Shown piece by piece: positions 20,642 through 48,054 of a stretch of DNA of 64,000 nt. The stretch is from Thermococcus litoralis DSM 5473. Its GTDB lineage: Archaea; Methanobacteriota_B; Thermococci; Thermococcales; Thermococcaceae. The notes below the pieces were generated by a model, which was not told the DNA's origin, did not search any database, and worked only from the letters and a program-made list of their open reading frames with translations. The stretch's first letter is position 1. The number at the start of each line of letters is the position of its first letter. The stretch spans positions 887,246 to 951,245 of the forward strand of contig NC_022084.1 of assembly GCF_000246985.2 (NCBI RefSeq), in the 5' to 3' direction. The position numbers were made by a program, and so were the translations under genes.

Positions 20642-20644
20642 TAT

Positions 20645-20675
20645 ATTCACCTACTGAATAATTCACTAACTGAAT
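20645..20675 (-). promoter_or_regulatory. tandem palindromic operator at ATPase promoter
   Basis: Two perfect 15-bp dyads of the form ATTCA-N5-TGAAT occupy 20645-20659 and 20661-20675, 16 bp apart. They lie between a minus-strand TATA element (TTTTTATATTC, about 20673-20683) and the ATPase start at 20641, where a repressor would block initiation. Direct reading of both half-sites; the binding protein is unknown. Confidence 0.7.
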
Positions 20676-20690
20676 ATAAAAATTTTGCCT

Positions 20691-21393: not shown

Positions 21394-21455
21394 CCGAAAG
21401 ATTTAACCACCTTTTCCCTCGGGTTGTGTGAGGTGCTGCAATGAAAGCAGAACAA
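21394..21455 (+). promoter_or_regulatory. orphan duplicated promoter with start codon and five codons
   Basis: CCGAAAGATTTAACCACC at 21394-21411 duplicates the promoter at 20797, with the same 47-bp spacing to an ATG (21441) and an AGGTG ribosome-binding site. After five codons (MKAEQ) the sequence runs into hairpin repeat copy A and the frame stops in it. It looks like a paralogue of the gene at 20844 cut off just after its start. Confidence 0.55.
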
Positions 21456-21500
<45 letters not shown>

Positions 21501-21564
21501 AGTAACAGTAAAAGAAGTGCAATGTTTAAATAGTCACAGCATGTATGTGTAGATGGGTGGAATT

Positions 21565-41380: not shown

Positions 41381-41462
41381 AGAACTTTTTTCAAGCCTCG
41401 CCCTTCAGGGCGGGGAGGAGGTCAGGTGGTGAGATCTCCAGATTAAGGCGAGACTTTCAAGA
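41381..41462 (-). repeat. dispersed hairpin repeat, copy B, with inverted partial tail
   Basis: On the minus strand 41381-41425 reads CTGACCTCCTCCCCGCCC, loop, GGGCGAGGCTTGAAAAAAG, almost the reference unit. Directly next to it, 41443-41462 has an inverted tail-like piece (GGCGAGACTTTCAAGAAC), so the whole is an 80-bp element with inverted ends. It overlaps the stop of the SWIM gene. A weaker tail-like GGCGAAGGCTTTGCAAA lies at about 41296-41312. Confidence 0.6.
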
Positions 41463-43118: not shown

Positions 43119-43144
43119 TTACAGTTTTATGCATAAATCTGTAA
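43119..43144 (+). promoter_or_regulatory. 26-bp near-perfect palindrome over ATPase promoter
   Basis: The two halves pair at 12 of 13 positions (outer arms TTACAG and CTGTAA, centre ATGCAT). It ends 10 bp before ATG 43155, overlapping the expected TATA or initiation region. This is a strong operator candidate, read directly from sequence. Confidence 0.75.
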
Positions 43145-43154
43145 GGGTGATATC

Positions 43155-44648
43155 ATGTTTGTTGATAGAAGGGCGGAACTGAAGGTGTTGCACTCTGCCT
43201 ATGGGTCACTAAAGAGTGGGGAGAAGGTTAATGTTGCTATTATCGGGCCGAGGAGAATTGGAAAGACTGAACTTCTTCTTAAATTCAGAGAGAAAGCCAA
43301 GGGAGTTGTTCCATACTTAAACTTACAGCGGATTGGAAGCCTAGACTCATTTATCTTTGCATACACGAGGGAGCTTCTATATGAAATTGCTAATACACTG
43401 GGATTGGAGATTGGAAGGAGTGAGCTCTTAACCTGGGATGACCTGCTAATCCTGTCTGCAAAGCTTGAAGTTGATAGGGAAGTTAGAGCAATCAAGGATG
43501 GGTGCCTCGAAACTCTCTTTGAAATTCAGGAGTCAATTCTAGAGAAAACAGGACAAAAGGCCGTTTTTATTCTCGATGAATTCCAGGAAGTTCTCAATTT
43601 CAAGGGATTCTTGGAGGTAATGCGTGCTGTCACGGAAAAGCAGAAGAACATTGCATACTTCATTTCTGGCTCTGCCGTTAGAATGATGGAAGAAATTTTA
43701 GCTCCAAAGAATCCCTTCTTTGGTCAATTCAGGCGAATTTACCTGAAGGGTTTGCCAAGAGAGGATGCAATAGAGCTTGCAAAAACAACCCTAGAAAGGG
43801 CAGGAATTGAAGCTTCCCGATCAGCACTTGAACTGATTTATAAACTCACCCAGGGTCATCCCTTTTATGTTCTAGCTGTGTGCAGGCGTTTAATTGAAGA
43901 GGGCTTTGAAAAGATTAGACGGAAAGATGTTCACTATGCCTTTCTCACTGAACTATTGACAGAGAAAGGGGACATCTATATGCACCTTGAATATGTTTTC
44001 AATGAGTCCCTCTCAAGGGCCTACAAAGGACCAATCCACAAGCAGATTCTTCTTATCCTGGCTCAGGAAGAGGGGTTGAGGCTTTCGGAGATTGCCAGAC
44101 GTTTGGGCAAGCCCAGTGGCGAGGTGTCAAACTATTTGAAATTCCTTTTGAGGACGGATTTGATTGTAAGGCAGAATGAAAAGTATTACTTTGCCGACAA
44201 GCTCATGCGTTTCTGGCTTGCAAAGACCTATCTTGGCATCACCGAGCTGGAGCTCAGGCGGGAGAAGTATTTGGAAGAGCTGATTAAGGAGTTAGAGGAA
44301 AAGTACCTCAGGGTGAAGAGGGAGCTTGGACTTGCAAGAGAATCCGTGGTCAGGGAGAAGATGAGAGAGGTGTTCGGCATTGATTTCAAGCCTTATCGGA
44401 GGGGTGATGTTGAGTTTGATGGTGTTGCCTTTAGTGATAAGATTTATGTGCTTGAGGTCAAGTGGAGGAATAAACCGGCAACTTACAGGGACGTGGAAGA
44501 GTTCGTGAAGAAAGCAAAAGAAGAGTTTGGATCTGCAGTGATGTTCTTCTTCTCGAAGTCAGGCTTTACTGAAAAAGCAAAAGAACTGTGTAAGAAAGAA
44601 GGTGTTAAAATGCTAATACCCGTGGATCTGGAGTGTAGCGCGTTCTGA
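43155..44648 (+). CDS. archaeal ATPase_2 / DUF234-type AAA ATPase
   Basis: A 497-residue protein. MFVDRRAELKVLHSAYGSLK, Walker A IIGPRRIGKTELLLKF, Walker B AVFILDEFQEVLNF, sensor FISGSAVRMMEEILAP. A winged-helix segment (EEGLRLSEIARRLGKPSGEV) follows, then a C-terminal nuclease-like domain with DVEFDGVAFSDKIYVLEVKW. Function unknown; the wHTH could bind the promoter palindrome. GGTGA 5 nt before ATG 43155. First of three successive ATPases. Confidence 0.88.
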   Translation: MFVDRRAELKVLHSAYGSLKSGEKVNVAIIGPRRIGKTELLLKFREKAKGVVPYLNLQRIGSLDSFIFAYTRELLYEIANTLGLEIGRSELLTWDDLLILSAKLEVDREVRAIKDGCLETLFEIQESILEKTGQKAVFILDEFQEVLNFKGFLEVMRAVTEKQKNIAYFISGSAVRMMEEILAPKNPFFGQFRRIYLKGLPREDAIELAKTTLERAGIEASRSALELIYKLTQGHPFYVLAVCRRLIEEGFEKIRRKDVHYAFLTELLTEKGDIYMHLEYVFNESLSRAYKGPIHKQILLILAQEEGLRLSEIARRLGKPSGEVSNYLKFLLRTDLIVRQNEKYYFADKLMRFWLAKTYLGITELELRREKYLEELIKELEEKYLRVKRELGLARESVVREKMREVFGIDFKPYRRGDVEFDGVAFSDKIYVLEVKWRNKPATYRDVEEFVKKAKEEFGSAVMFFFSKSGFTEKAKELCKKEGVKMLIPVDLECSAF

Positions 44649-44718: not shown

Positions 44719-44767
44719 ATGACCTCTTCCCCGCCCTAAAGGACGAGGCTTTCAAAAGGAAGAAAGT
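44719..44767 (+). repeat. dispersed hairpin repeat, copy D
   Basis: ATGACCTCTTCCCCGCCC-TAAA-GGACGAGGCTTTCAAAAGG, nearly the reference unit. It lies between two ATPase genes, 207 bp before ATG 44974. The 44649-44973 gap otherwise contains a TGTTTAAATA element just after the repeat, no ORF, and the operator at 44903. Confidence 0.65.
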
Positions 44768-46358: not shown

Positions 46359-46510
46359 TTAGTCATTGAGAATCATCACATCGAGGTTCTCCTCTTTAAT
46401 CTCAACCCCAATTATATCAAAGAACTTGGAGAAGTCTAGCTTCTTCCGTGGAAGATTTCCATCCTATCTTCGAGCTCAACAAGTATAACTTCACTCCCTC
46501 ACTTTCACGC
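46359..46510 (-). pseudogene. small antitoxin-like remnant, frameshifted
   Basis: The minus strand reads EVILVELEDRMEIFHGR, then after one lost base KLDFSKFFDIIGVEIKEENL and DVMILND with a stop at 46359. This looks like a complete C terminus of a small protein, perhaps an antitoxin, with no start. It is most of the 46357-46710 gap; repeat E and the IR at 46658 fill the rest. Confidence 0.4.
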
Positions 46511-46536
46511 CACTCCTTTTGGAATGATTTTTCTCT

Positions 46537-46577
46537 TTAAAACAAGCCTCGTCCTTCAGGGCCGGGAGGAGGTCAGT
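46537..46577 (-). repeat. dispersed hairpin repeat, copy E
   Basis: On the minus strand: CTGACCTCCTCCCGGCCC, loop, GGACGAGGCTTGTTTTAAAG. It lies 135 bp before the ATPase start at 46711, in opposite orientation to copies C and D. Confidence 0.6.
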
Positions 46578-46657
46578 TTCACTATCAAGATCACCATTTA
46601 TCCTAGAACAATAAATTCTAAATATGGTTTTTGGTATCGTAAGCAAGGGCGCAAAGC

Positions 46658-46708
46658 TATATTCCATAAAATATAAAAACATTAAAAATTTATATTTCGT
46701 GGGATATA
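46658..46708 (+). promoter_or_regulatory. 20-bp inverted repeat spanning ATPase promoter
   Basis: Arms 46658-46677 (TATATTCCATAAAATATAAA) and 46689-46708 pair at 17 of 20 positions across an 11-bp spacer. TATA-like elements lie inside both arms. The right arm ends 2 bp before ATG 46711 and covers its GGGAT ribosome-binding site, so a bound protein or an RNA stem could block expression. Confidence 0.7.
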
Positions 46709-46710
46709 AG

Positions 46711-48054
46711 ATGTTGAAAAGAGAAGAAATTATTGAGCTGATCAGTGTAGATAACTTTTGGGGCAGGCCCCAAGAGGTTGGGATAGAAAGGGATTACTAC
46801 TTAAAACGGCTTAGCAAACTTGCCAAAGCTAAGGACTTCTCAATATCGATTATTGGAGTTAGAAGATCAGGAAAGACCTTTCTAACAAAGCAGTTTTTGA
46901 AAAAAGCCATAGACTCTGGACTTGGCCCCGAACAAACCCTCTACGTAAACCTAGAAGATCCAAGGTTTCATCCTTACCTAAGTTTAGAGCTCTTGGATGA
47001 GATCTATCAAGCGTACAGAACGTTTGTCAACAGAGATAAATTTGCGTTGATAGTCCTTGATGAAATCCAAAACATTGAGGACTGGGAAAAATGGGTTCGG
47101 AGAGCAATGGAAAAAGAAAACGTCCAAATAATTGTAACTGGATCAACGTCTTCCCTTTTAAAAAGTGAGGTATCAACTGCATTAACCGGACGTTCGCTAA
47201 CTCTCGAAGTTTTCCCGCTCAGTTTCCGAGAGTTCTTGAAATTCAAAGGGATTGTGGTTGAGAACCAGCTAGACATTATAAAAAACAGAGCTAAAATAGA
47301 GAGACTCCTAATAGAGTACCTCCAATTCGGGGGATTTCCAAGAGTAGTTCTGGAAGAGGATGAATTCTTAAAAAGAGAAATACTCAAGGAGCTTTTTGAC
47401 GGCATCGTAATGAGAGACGTTGTATTCCGGCATGGATTTAGGGAAGTAAATTCAGTCAAACTGGTTGCAGAATTGGCCATAAACTCGTTCTCCTCTCTTA
47501 AGAGCATAAGCAGTCTAAGAAATGAACTGGCCGGAATCCTAAAGAGGAAAGTCTCTCCAAATTTTGTTGCGGAGGTAATAGAAGCCCTCAGAGAAAGTTA
47601 TCTGCTCTTCACAATCCCACCTTTTTCTCCAAAGATAAAAGATGTAAAGAAGTACCCAAAGAAAATTTATGTCGTAGATACAGGATTAGCGACCTCCGTA
47701 GCATTAAGTTTCTCCAAAAATCTAGGCAGGTTAGCCGAGAATGCAGTTGCCGTACATCTCATTAAAAAATATGGAGAAAACAACCTGTTCTACTACAAGG
47801 GCAAGAGAGAAGTTGATTTCATTATCAAAGAAGGGTTAAAAGTAACAAAAGCAATCCAAGTAACTTGGGATTTAAGAGAAAGCTACGAAAGAGAAGTAGA
47901 AGCCATATTGGAGGCAATGGATGTCTTTAATCTTGGCAAAGGCCTTATCATAACTGCAAATGAAGAGGGAGAAGAAGCTCACGGAAACAAAAAGGTAAAA
48001 CTAATTCCACTCTGGAAGTTTCTTCTGGATTTAGAGTTTGCAAAAGAATTTTAA
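46711..48054 (+). CDS. AAA_14 / DUF4143 ATPase
   Basis: About 447 residues. MLKREEIIELISVDNFWGRP, Walker A IIGVRRSGKTFLTKQF, Walker B LIVLDEIQNIEDWEKWVRRA, sensor IIVTGSTSSLL, the TALTGRSLTLEVFPLSFREF block and a C-terminal DUF4143 domain (FYYKGKREVDFIIKEGLKV). Same family as the partial gene at 3-953. An in-frame extension to 46624 is rejected because it runs through the inverted repeat and lacks a ribosome-binding site. Confidence 0.88.
   Translation: MLKREEIIELISVDNFWGRPQEVGIERDYYLKRLSKLAKAKDFSISIIGVRRSGKTFLTKQFLKKAIDSGLGPEQTLYVNLEDPRFHPYLSLELLDEIYQAYRTFVNRDKFALIVLDEIQNIEDWEKWVRRAMEKENVQIIVTGSTSSLLKSEVSTALTGRSLTLEVFPLSFREFLKFKGIVVENQLDIIKNRAKIERLLIEYLQFGGFPRVVLEEDEFLKREILKELFDGIVMRDVVFRHGFREVNSVKLVAELAINSFSSLKSISSLRNELAGILKRKVSPNFVAEVIEALRESYLLFTIPPFSPKIKDVKKYPKKIYVVDTGLATSVALSFSKNLGRLAENAVAVHLIKKYGENNLFYYKGKREVDFIIKEGLKVTKAIQVTWDLRESYEREVEAILEAMDVFNLGKGLIITANEEGEEAHGNKKVKLIPLWKFLLDLEFAKEF

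What the first reader, a model, noticed from the sequence alone, without database searches (positions are those of the whole stretch)
46658..46708. 20-bp-arm inverted repeat covering promoter and ribosome-binding site of the 46711 ATPase
Arms pair at 17/20 positions with an 11-bp spacer and reach to 2 bp before the ATG. It may be an operator or, if transcribed, an RNA stem that hides the ribosome-binding site. The two arms differ mainly by A-to-G changes that still allow G-U pairs in RNA, which hints at the RNA option.
Basis: partly seen in the sequence, partly recalled or inferred. Interest (0 to 1): 0.6.

Follow-up and report, generated by a model that had tools for sequence, protein, structure and literature searches.

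The report
Private tandem operator of archaeal ATPase
The inverted repeat is really two copies of a palindromic protein-binding site placed 33 bases apart over the promoter of a candidate virus-defence ATPase gene, and related ATPase genes in the same microbes have the same layout with a different palindrome each, which suggests that each of these proteins switches its own gene off.

Summary
The inverted repeat is real (arms 46658-46677 / 46689-46708, 17 of 20, spacer 11) and is the only one of its strength in the window. It is better read as two tandem copies of one palindrome, TTTATATT-N6-AATATAAA, 33 bp apart (46656-46677, 46689-46710). In 19 orthologous promoters the first site is always present, with a partner exactly 33 bp downstream (11 of 19) or upstream (8 of 19); the 'RNA stem' collapses in those 8. 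The TATA box lies in site 1, so transcription should start near 46701, inside the right arm; the stem would also melt at 85 C. The RNA option is therefore unlikely. 99 other AAA_14/ATPase_2 promoters from six Thermococcaceae genomes are strongly enriched for palindromes (49/99 versus 15/180 controls), each with its own sequence. Tandem copies sit 32-35 bp apart in the AAA_14 class and 14-19 bp in the ATPase_2 class. Geometry follows the protein class and sequence is private, which points to self-binding: autorepression by each ATPase through its helix-turn-helix. Binding itself is inferred, not shown. Against it: site pairs persist after rfcL in genomes that lost the gene.

The parts
46656..46677 (+). 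Site 1: imperfect palindrome GCTATATT-CCATAA-AATATAAA (consensus TTTATATT-N6-AATATAAA), 14 of 16 arm positions; carries BRE/TATA in its right half
   Evidence: Present at the fixed place in 19 of 19 orthologous promoters, 12-16 of 16
46689..46710 (+). Site 2: imperfect palindrome TTTATATT-TCGTGG-GATATAAG, 14 of 16, exactly 33 bp after site 1 and abutting the ATG
   Evidence: 14-15 of 16 in 11 of 19 orthologous promoters; in the other 8 replaced by a copy 33 bp upstream of site 1
46671..46678 (+). Predicted TATA box ATATAAAA (with A-rich BRE just upstream)
   Evidence: Conserved in the 19-promoter alignment, 51-55 nt (site start) before the start codon; motif assignment by analogy with PMC4247193 and PMC5316973
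46701..46701 (+). Predicted transcription start (leader GGGATATAAG, 10 nt)
   Evidence: Inference: 23 bp after the TATA box; no experimental 5' end seen
46711..48054 (+). ATPase gene: AAA_14 + DUF4143, matches PADLOC candidate defence model PDC-S01
   Evidence: Pfam, PADLOC PDLC04787 6.9e-110, AlphaFold model pLDDT 87, structural relatives 2qen and 2fna
43119..43144 (+). Palindrome TTACAGTTTTATGCATAAATCTGTAA at the promoter of the neighbouring ATPase_2 gene 43155-44648: same kind of feature, other sequence
   Evidence: (p = 0.005, L151)
20642..20678 (-). Tandem palindromes (ATTCAGTTAGTGAAT and a near copy, 16 bp apart) directly before the start codon of a minus-strand ATPase_2 gene
   Evidence: (p = 0.005, L150)

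Best explanation
It is a tandem operator in DNA. Two copies of an about 22-bp palindrome (TTTATATT-N6-AATATAAA), centred 33 bp apart (about three helical turns), cover the TATA box, the transcription start and the last base before the start codon of an AAA_14-DUF4143 ATPase gene. A dimer binds each palindrome on the same face of the helix; the pair blocks TBP/TFB or RNA polymerase and keeps the gene low. The binder is most likely the ATPase itself, through a helix-turn-helix between its ATPase and nuclease-like domains. It would be a private, self-repressing switch that ATP state, infection or damage could release. SHOWN: the sites, their fixed 33-bp period and conservation, their near-uniqueness in the genome, and the family-wide enrichment with gene-specific sequences and class-specific spacing. 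INFERRED: protein binding, repression, identity of the binder, and the trigger.
For: Tandem palindrome: 19 of 19 orthologous promoters have site 0, and a second site exactly 33 bp away, downstream in 11 and upstream in 8 (one of these also has -66); background scores at other offsets reach at most 11 of 16 in 2432 windows. Genome: with up to 2 mismatches only this place in G000 has two sites 33 bp apart; single matches are near control level (8 versus 5-6). A sequence-only model of the pair searched in 94 genomes gives its 18 best hits at promoters of this gene. Family: 99 other ATPase promoters, p<=0.05 in 49 of 99 versus 15 of 180 control promoters, p<=0.005 in 24 versus 2; TATA-matched controls 49/97 versus 12/135; the same genes at -200..-121 and +21..+100 give 4/99 and 3/99. 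Tandem palindromes (score >=0.75) in 46 of 99 versus 3 of 180; spacing 32-35 bp in 14 of 16 AAA_14 cases, 14-19 bp in 29 of 30 ATPase_2 cases. Replicate: 20 DUF4143 genes from 18 genomes outside the six, 11 with a tandem pair, all 35 bp (many are one orthologous group). The palindromes differ between paralogues of one genome. The operator stays with the gene in two settings: after rfcL in Thermococcus and elsewhere in this genome. Fold: DNA-binding Orc1/Cdc6 among the structural matches (2qby_B Z 13.3, 2v1u_A Z 12.9).
Against: No binding or expression data. The helix-turn-helix of this protein (helices 246-258, 266-277, 283-295) is my reading of the AlphaFold secondary structure; no Pfam HTH model hits it. 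In 10 of 48 regions after rfcL in genomes without this gene, two sites still stand about 33 bp apart, which fits recent loss but also a binder encoded elsewhere. In seven of those the arms are 86% identical pairwise, the linker 74% and downstream DNA 46%, a modest difference that is biased because the sites were picked by score. At cluster level the spacing contrast is weaker: 9 of 11 AAA_14 clusters against 0 of 4 ATPase_2 clusters, Fisher 0.011. About half of the ATPase promoters are not individually significant, the direct neighbour 44974 among them (p = 0.88).
Confidence: 0.6

Rival explanations
1. The same tandem operator is bound by a separate regulator encoded elsewhere (for example an Lrp-type protein, which is known to bind clusters of imperfect palindromes two or three helical turns apart).
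For: Lrp sites are clusters with centre-to-centre spacing of two or three helical turns (PMC2995911, passages); site pairs persist without the gene in 10 of 48 regions after rfcL.
Against: Sites are essentially confined to this gene. Each paralogous ATPase has its own palindrome while spacing follows the ATPase class, which would need one extra dedicated regulator per ATPase.
Confidence: 0.27
2. The arms form an RNA hairpin in the 5' leader that hides the ribosome-binding site.
For: 17 Watson-Crick and 2 G-U pairs of 20 in the window copy; -15.1 kcal/mol at 37 C.
Against: 4-12 of 20 pairs in 8 of 19 orthologous promoters, with the partner palindrome moved to the other side; predicted start inside the right arm; no stable structure at 85 C.
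Confidence: 0.03
3. The repeat is a by-product of an AT-rich promoter (TATA-like words in both strands) without a binder.
For: Both sites are AT-rich and site 1 contains the TATA box.
Against: 15 of 20,000 local-composition simulations give such a repeat; TATA-matched control promoters are not enriched; the 33-bp register is kept in 19 of 19.
Confidence: 0.03
4. The palindromes serve the ATPase as a DNA landing or nuclease target site (immunity tag, origin-like or mobile-element site) rather than transcription control.
For: The proteins are nuclease-like candidate defence factors (PMC12988326, passages); structural likeness to Orc1/Cdc6, which bind sites near their own genes (the site placement is recalled); solo site pairs without the gene.
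Against: Position is locked to TATA and start codon (centres of significant palindromes: 43 of 49 within 45 nt of the start codon); no enrichment 120-200 nt upstream or inside the gene.
Confidence: 0.07

Closest known systems
PDC-S01 (PADLOC phage-defence candidate; AAA ATPase + DUF4143/PD-(D/E)XK) and its cousin PDC-S27 (ATPase_2 + DUF234)
   Same: The downstream protein matches PDC-S01 (6.9e-110) and the neighbour 44974 matches PDC-S27 (5.7e-43). PDC-S01 is described as the fourth most common defence across prokaryotes with validation pending for most PDCs (PMC12988326, passages).
   Different: I saw no description of promoters or self-regulation for these families (the PDC paper was read as passages only).
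Archaeal Lrp/feast-famine operators (for example Ss-LrpB on its own gene)
   Same: Clusters of imperfect palindromes spaced by whole helical turns over the promoter; autoregulation (PMC2995911, passages).
   Different: The gene controlled encodes an ATPase, not an Lrp protein, and the palindrome changes from paralogue to paralogue while the spacing stays.
2qen (PABY2304, P. abyssi) and 2fna (SSO1545, S. solfataricus) archaeal ATPases
   Same: Best structural matches of the model, Z 18.8 over 277 and 18.0 over 275 residues (rmsd 4.3 and 4.2).
   Different: About 17% identity; I found no published link to autoregulation for them.
IniR-type signal-transduction ATPases (mycobacteria)
   Same: A regulator with an SSO1545-like ATPase domain and a DNA-binding domain that is needed to induce a promoter (PMC5760070, passages).
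   Different: Bacterial, different DNA-binding domain, acts on another operon; no tandem palindromes mentioned in the passages seen.

Membership tests
PDC-S01 candidate defence ATPase | Match to the PADLOC PDC-S01 profiles over most of the protein | tested here: met
   PDLC04787, residues 24-440, E 6.9e-110
PDC-S01 candidate defence ATPase | Protects against viruses | not testable with these tools
   No assay possible; validation pending for most PDCs (PMC12988326)
Tandem palindromic operator (DNA) | Two or more copies of one palindrome at a fixed helical spacing over the promoter, conserved in orthologues | tested here: met
   19 of 19 promoters, 33 bp
Tandem palindromic operator (DNA) | Bound by a regulator that changes transcription | not testable with these tools
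   Needs binding and expression assays
Autoregulated gene | Product contains a DNA-binding domain | tested here: inconclusive
   Helices 246-295 and a strand read as winged helix in the AlphaFold model; no Pfam HTH hit; Orc1/Cdc6 among matches
Autoregulated gene | Operator essentially restricted to its own gene | tested here: met
   Only double site in the genome; 18 best model hits in 94 genomes all at this gene; exception: solo pairs after rfcL
cis-acting RNA stem / riboswitch | Pairing kept across relatives | tested here: not met
   8 of 19 rows pair at 4-12 of 20
cis-acting RNA stem / riboswitch | Both arms transcribed | tested here: inconclusive
   TATA in the left arm predicts a start inside the right arm; no mapped 5' end
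Lrp-type operator | Bound by an Lrp/AsnC-family protein | not testable with these tools
   Only the helical spacing of palindromes could be compared
Rfam HgcC RNA (upstream region 46450-46586) | Score at or above the gathering threshold | tested here: not met
   19.7 bits against 50

The most novel reading that the evidence does not exclude
PDC-S01 and PDC-S27, among the commonest candidate defence genes of archaea, are a large class of self-repressing STAND-like switches. Each paralogue recognises its own private palindrome with class-fixed geometry (two sites 32-35 bp apart around the TATA box for AAA_14-DUF4143, 14-19 bp for ATPase_2-DUF234). A genome can therefore hold many such genes without cross-talk, and infection or damage would release a protein from its own promoter and set off a burst of an ATPase with a nuclease-like domain.
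Probability: 0.4. Interest if true: 0.8.

Novelty: new variant of a known kind. Interest (0 to 1): 0.62.

Why it matters
The function and control of the AAA_14-DUF4143 and ATPase_2-DUF234 proteins are open although they are very common. If each carries a private operator for itself, their DNA specificity can be read from the promoter, their regulation can be tested gene by gene, and the idea that they are stand-alone nucleases gives way to a sensor that silences itself until triggered. It also gives a natural set of paired protein and DNA specificities for a winged-helix family.

Tried and rejected
RNA stem: rejected on pairing, start site and temperature. In-frame upstream start at 46624 (476 aa): rejected because open frames in three orthologues (G023, G024, G069: 437, 440, 440 aa) leave no room for an extension. 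HgcC RNA upstream: below threshold. NCBIfam: no family for this protein. PDB sequence search: none. Literature: searches gave no paper on promoters of these ATPases; 63 and 64 were flooded by unrelated words; DUF4143 occurs in 1 held paper (listing only). TK2220 as the T. kodakarensis name is my guess and found nothing.

Solo site pairs after rfcL were examined as a test of an independent binder. One search mixed strands and is superseded; the outcome is ambiguous. The 3' remnants of the lost gene in some of them were seen by eye only. Model hits G087:422633 (not opened) and G047:C178 (opened, no pair seen) were not followed.

Rows dropped: L017 (G076, an ortholog that lacks the N-terminal part) from the 19. 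In one search, 18 of 48 promoters were skipped, most because of an ORF-length rule; 17 of these were redone, L273 was not. L298, L302 and L303 are in both calls. In one search two loci from the six discovery genomes (L277, L288) were left out beforehand. Gene starts were chosen by a TATA-based rule, the same for ATPases and controls, and are not annotated starts.

Full report
WHAT IS THERE. It is the only repeat of that strength in the window and unlikely by chance (1 of 60 Markov windows; 15 of 20,000 local simulations). The window is bases 887246-951245 of a single-contig genome of 2,215,172 bp. Its length fits my memory of Thermococcus litoralis DSM 5473 (recalled, not tested); its close relatives in a named collection are Thermococcales.

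WHAT IT REALLY IS. Of 20 orthologous genes with more than 500 bits in 94 Thermococcaceae genomes, 19 have an intact start. All 19 promoters carry the palindrome TTTATATT-N6-AATATAAA at one fixed place, 51-55 nt before the start codon. At exactly 33 bp a second copy stands either downstream, as in the window (11 of 19), or upstream (8 of 19); one genome has copies at 0, -33 and -66. The weakest upstream copy (L030) scores 11 of 16, equal to the best of 2432 background windows; the other seven score 13 or more. Because each copy is a palindrome, two tandem copies look like one long inverted repeat. The alternation of partner sites is hard to explain by an RNA stem, which pairs at only 4-12 of 20 positions in those 8, and easy to explain by two protein dimers on one face of the helix. 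The rows are related, so 19 is not 19 independent cases.

PROMOTER. The most conserved block (AATATAAAA in the alignment) sits in the right half of site 1 and is TATA-like. With the TATA-to-start distance of about 23 bp in T. kodakarensis (PMC4247193, passages) and TATA at -30 to -20 in T. onnurineus (PMC5316973, passages), transcription should start near 46701, giving a 10-nt leader inside the right arm. The stem would also be unstable at growth temperature: -15.1, -0.7 and 0 kcal/mol at 37, 75 and 85 C.

SPECIFICITY. Within the genome only this place has two matches 33 bp apart; single matches with up to 2 mismatches are near control level (8 against 5-6). A sequence-only model of the pair, run over 94 genomes, has its 18 best hits at this gene's promoter in 18 genomes, and the nineteenth orthologue (G003) is hit at 5e-6. 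Further hits are solo pairs: after rfcL (PIP-box C-terminus, naming recalled), 10 of 48 regions without the gene still have two sites about 33 bp apart. In several the 3' end of the lost gene seems still visible (by eye). They may be recent relics or may mean that the binder is encoded elsewhere; one search does not decide.

THE PROTEIN. AAA_14 plus DUF4143, PADLOC PDC-S01 (6.9e-110). The AlphaFold model on 29 aligned relatives is good (pLDDT 87). Its best structural matches are the archaeal ATPases 2qen and 2fna (Z 18.8 and 18.0), then NLR/CED-4 ATPases and Orc1/Cdc6 (for Foldseek). Helices at 246-295 followed by a strand look like a winged helix, and the C-terminal part looks PD-(D/E)XK-like (both my reading). 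The neighbours 43155 and 44974 are ATPase_2 genes of the same wider kind.

GENERALISATION. Other ATPase genes of this genome also have palindromes before the start codon, with other sequences. I therefore tested 99 AAA_14/ATPase_2 genes from six genomes, leaving out the gene of the finding and its two orthologues there, against 180 control promoters from 20 stretches of the same genomes. The best palindrome in -80..-1 was compared with 200 dinucleotide shuffles: p<=0.005 in 24/99 against 2/180, p<=0.05 in 49/99 against 15/180 (Fisher 1.5e-14). TATA-matched controls gave 49/97 against 12/135. The same genes at -200..-121 and +21..+100 gave 4/99 and 3/99. By the same test the gene of the finding scores p = 0.005. 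Tandem palindromes at score >=0.80 occur in 27/99 against 0/180, and at >=0.75 in 46/99 against 3/180, with spacing 32-35 bp in 14 of 16 AAA_14 genes and 14-19 bp in 29 of 30 ATPase_2 genes. Grouping by N-terminal similarity leaves 25 clusters, and the spacing contrast is then 9 of 11 against 0 of 4 (Fisher 0.011). In 20 DUF4143 genes of 18 other genomes, 7 have p<=0.05 and 11 have a tandem pair, all 35 bp apart; many belong to one group with GGTAC half-sites. A first run that skipped 18 of 48 promoters gave 12 of 30 at p<=0.05.

MECHANISM. The geometry is shared by a protein class and the sequence is private to each member. One regulator per ATPase would be needed if the binder were separate; a self-binding ATPase needs none. 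Hence the preferred reading is autorepression through two dimers that sandwich or cover the TATA box and start site. Precedents: Lrp-type autoregulation with helically spaced palindromes (PMC2995911, passages) and the signal-transduction ATPase IniR, with an SSO1545-like domain, needed to induce a promoter (PMC5760070, passages); NLR NB-ARC domains bind and bend DNA (PMC4599002, passages). What releases the protein, and whether it acts on viruses, is unknown; PDC-S01 is called the fourth most common defence across prokaryotes with validation pending for most PDCs (PMC12988326, passages).

NOVELTY. Ten paper searches showed nothing on promoters of these ATPases in the held open-access library; subscription journals are mostly missing, so this is not proof of absence.

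Noticed in passing
window 46528-46583: A GC-richer repeat (cctcgtccttcagggccgggaggaggtcag...) with 16 other matches in the genome, three more of them in this window (about 21454-21519, 41392-41425, 44720-44751); a sub-threshold HgcC RNA match covers it. One copy (L003) lies between two ordinary ORFs, not in a transposase.
   Followed up: partly
L093, L104, L113, L118, L128, L130, L135, L136, L137, L139: Solo two-site arrays after rfcL in genomes that lack the ATPase gene; in several the spacer of the second site is CTGCGG or similar instead of CCATAA, so the TATA box is lost while the palindrome remains.
   Followed up: partly
G000:C1 about 2153149-2153834 (L147, L154): A divergent pair of a DUF4143 ATPase and an ATPase_2 gene shares one intergenic region with two different palindrome sets.
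   Followed up: no
window 46711-48054, residues 367-385: The PD-(D/E)XK-like stretch reads E-V-D ... Q-V-T, with Q and T where E and K are usual (motif recalled), so the nuclease may be inactive or altered.
   Followed up: no
G005: One genome has 32 ATPase_2 matches against 6-15 in the five others searched, some broken or partial.
   Followed up: no
L199, L225: In some ATPase_2 genes the second palindrome (ctaatcATGattagt) is centred on the start codon itself, so a bound protein would cover the initiation codon.
   Followed up: no
L140 (G076:C1:597000-600200): An orthologue lacking its first 99 residues, with a weak site-pair match about 870 bp upstream of the remaining coding part: probably interrupted.
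   Followed up: no
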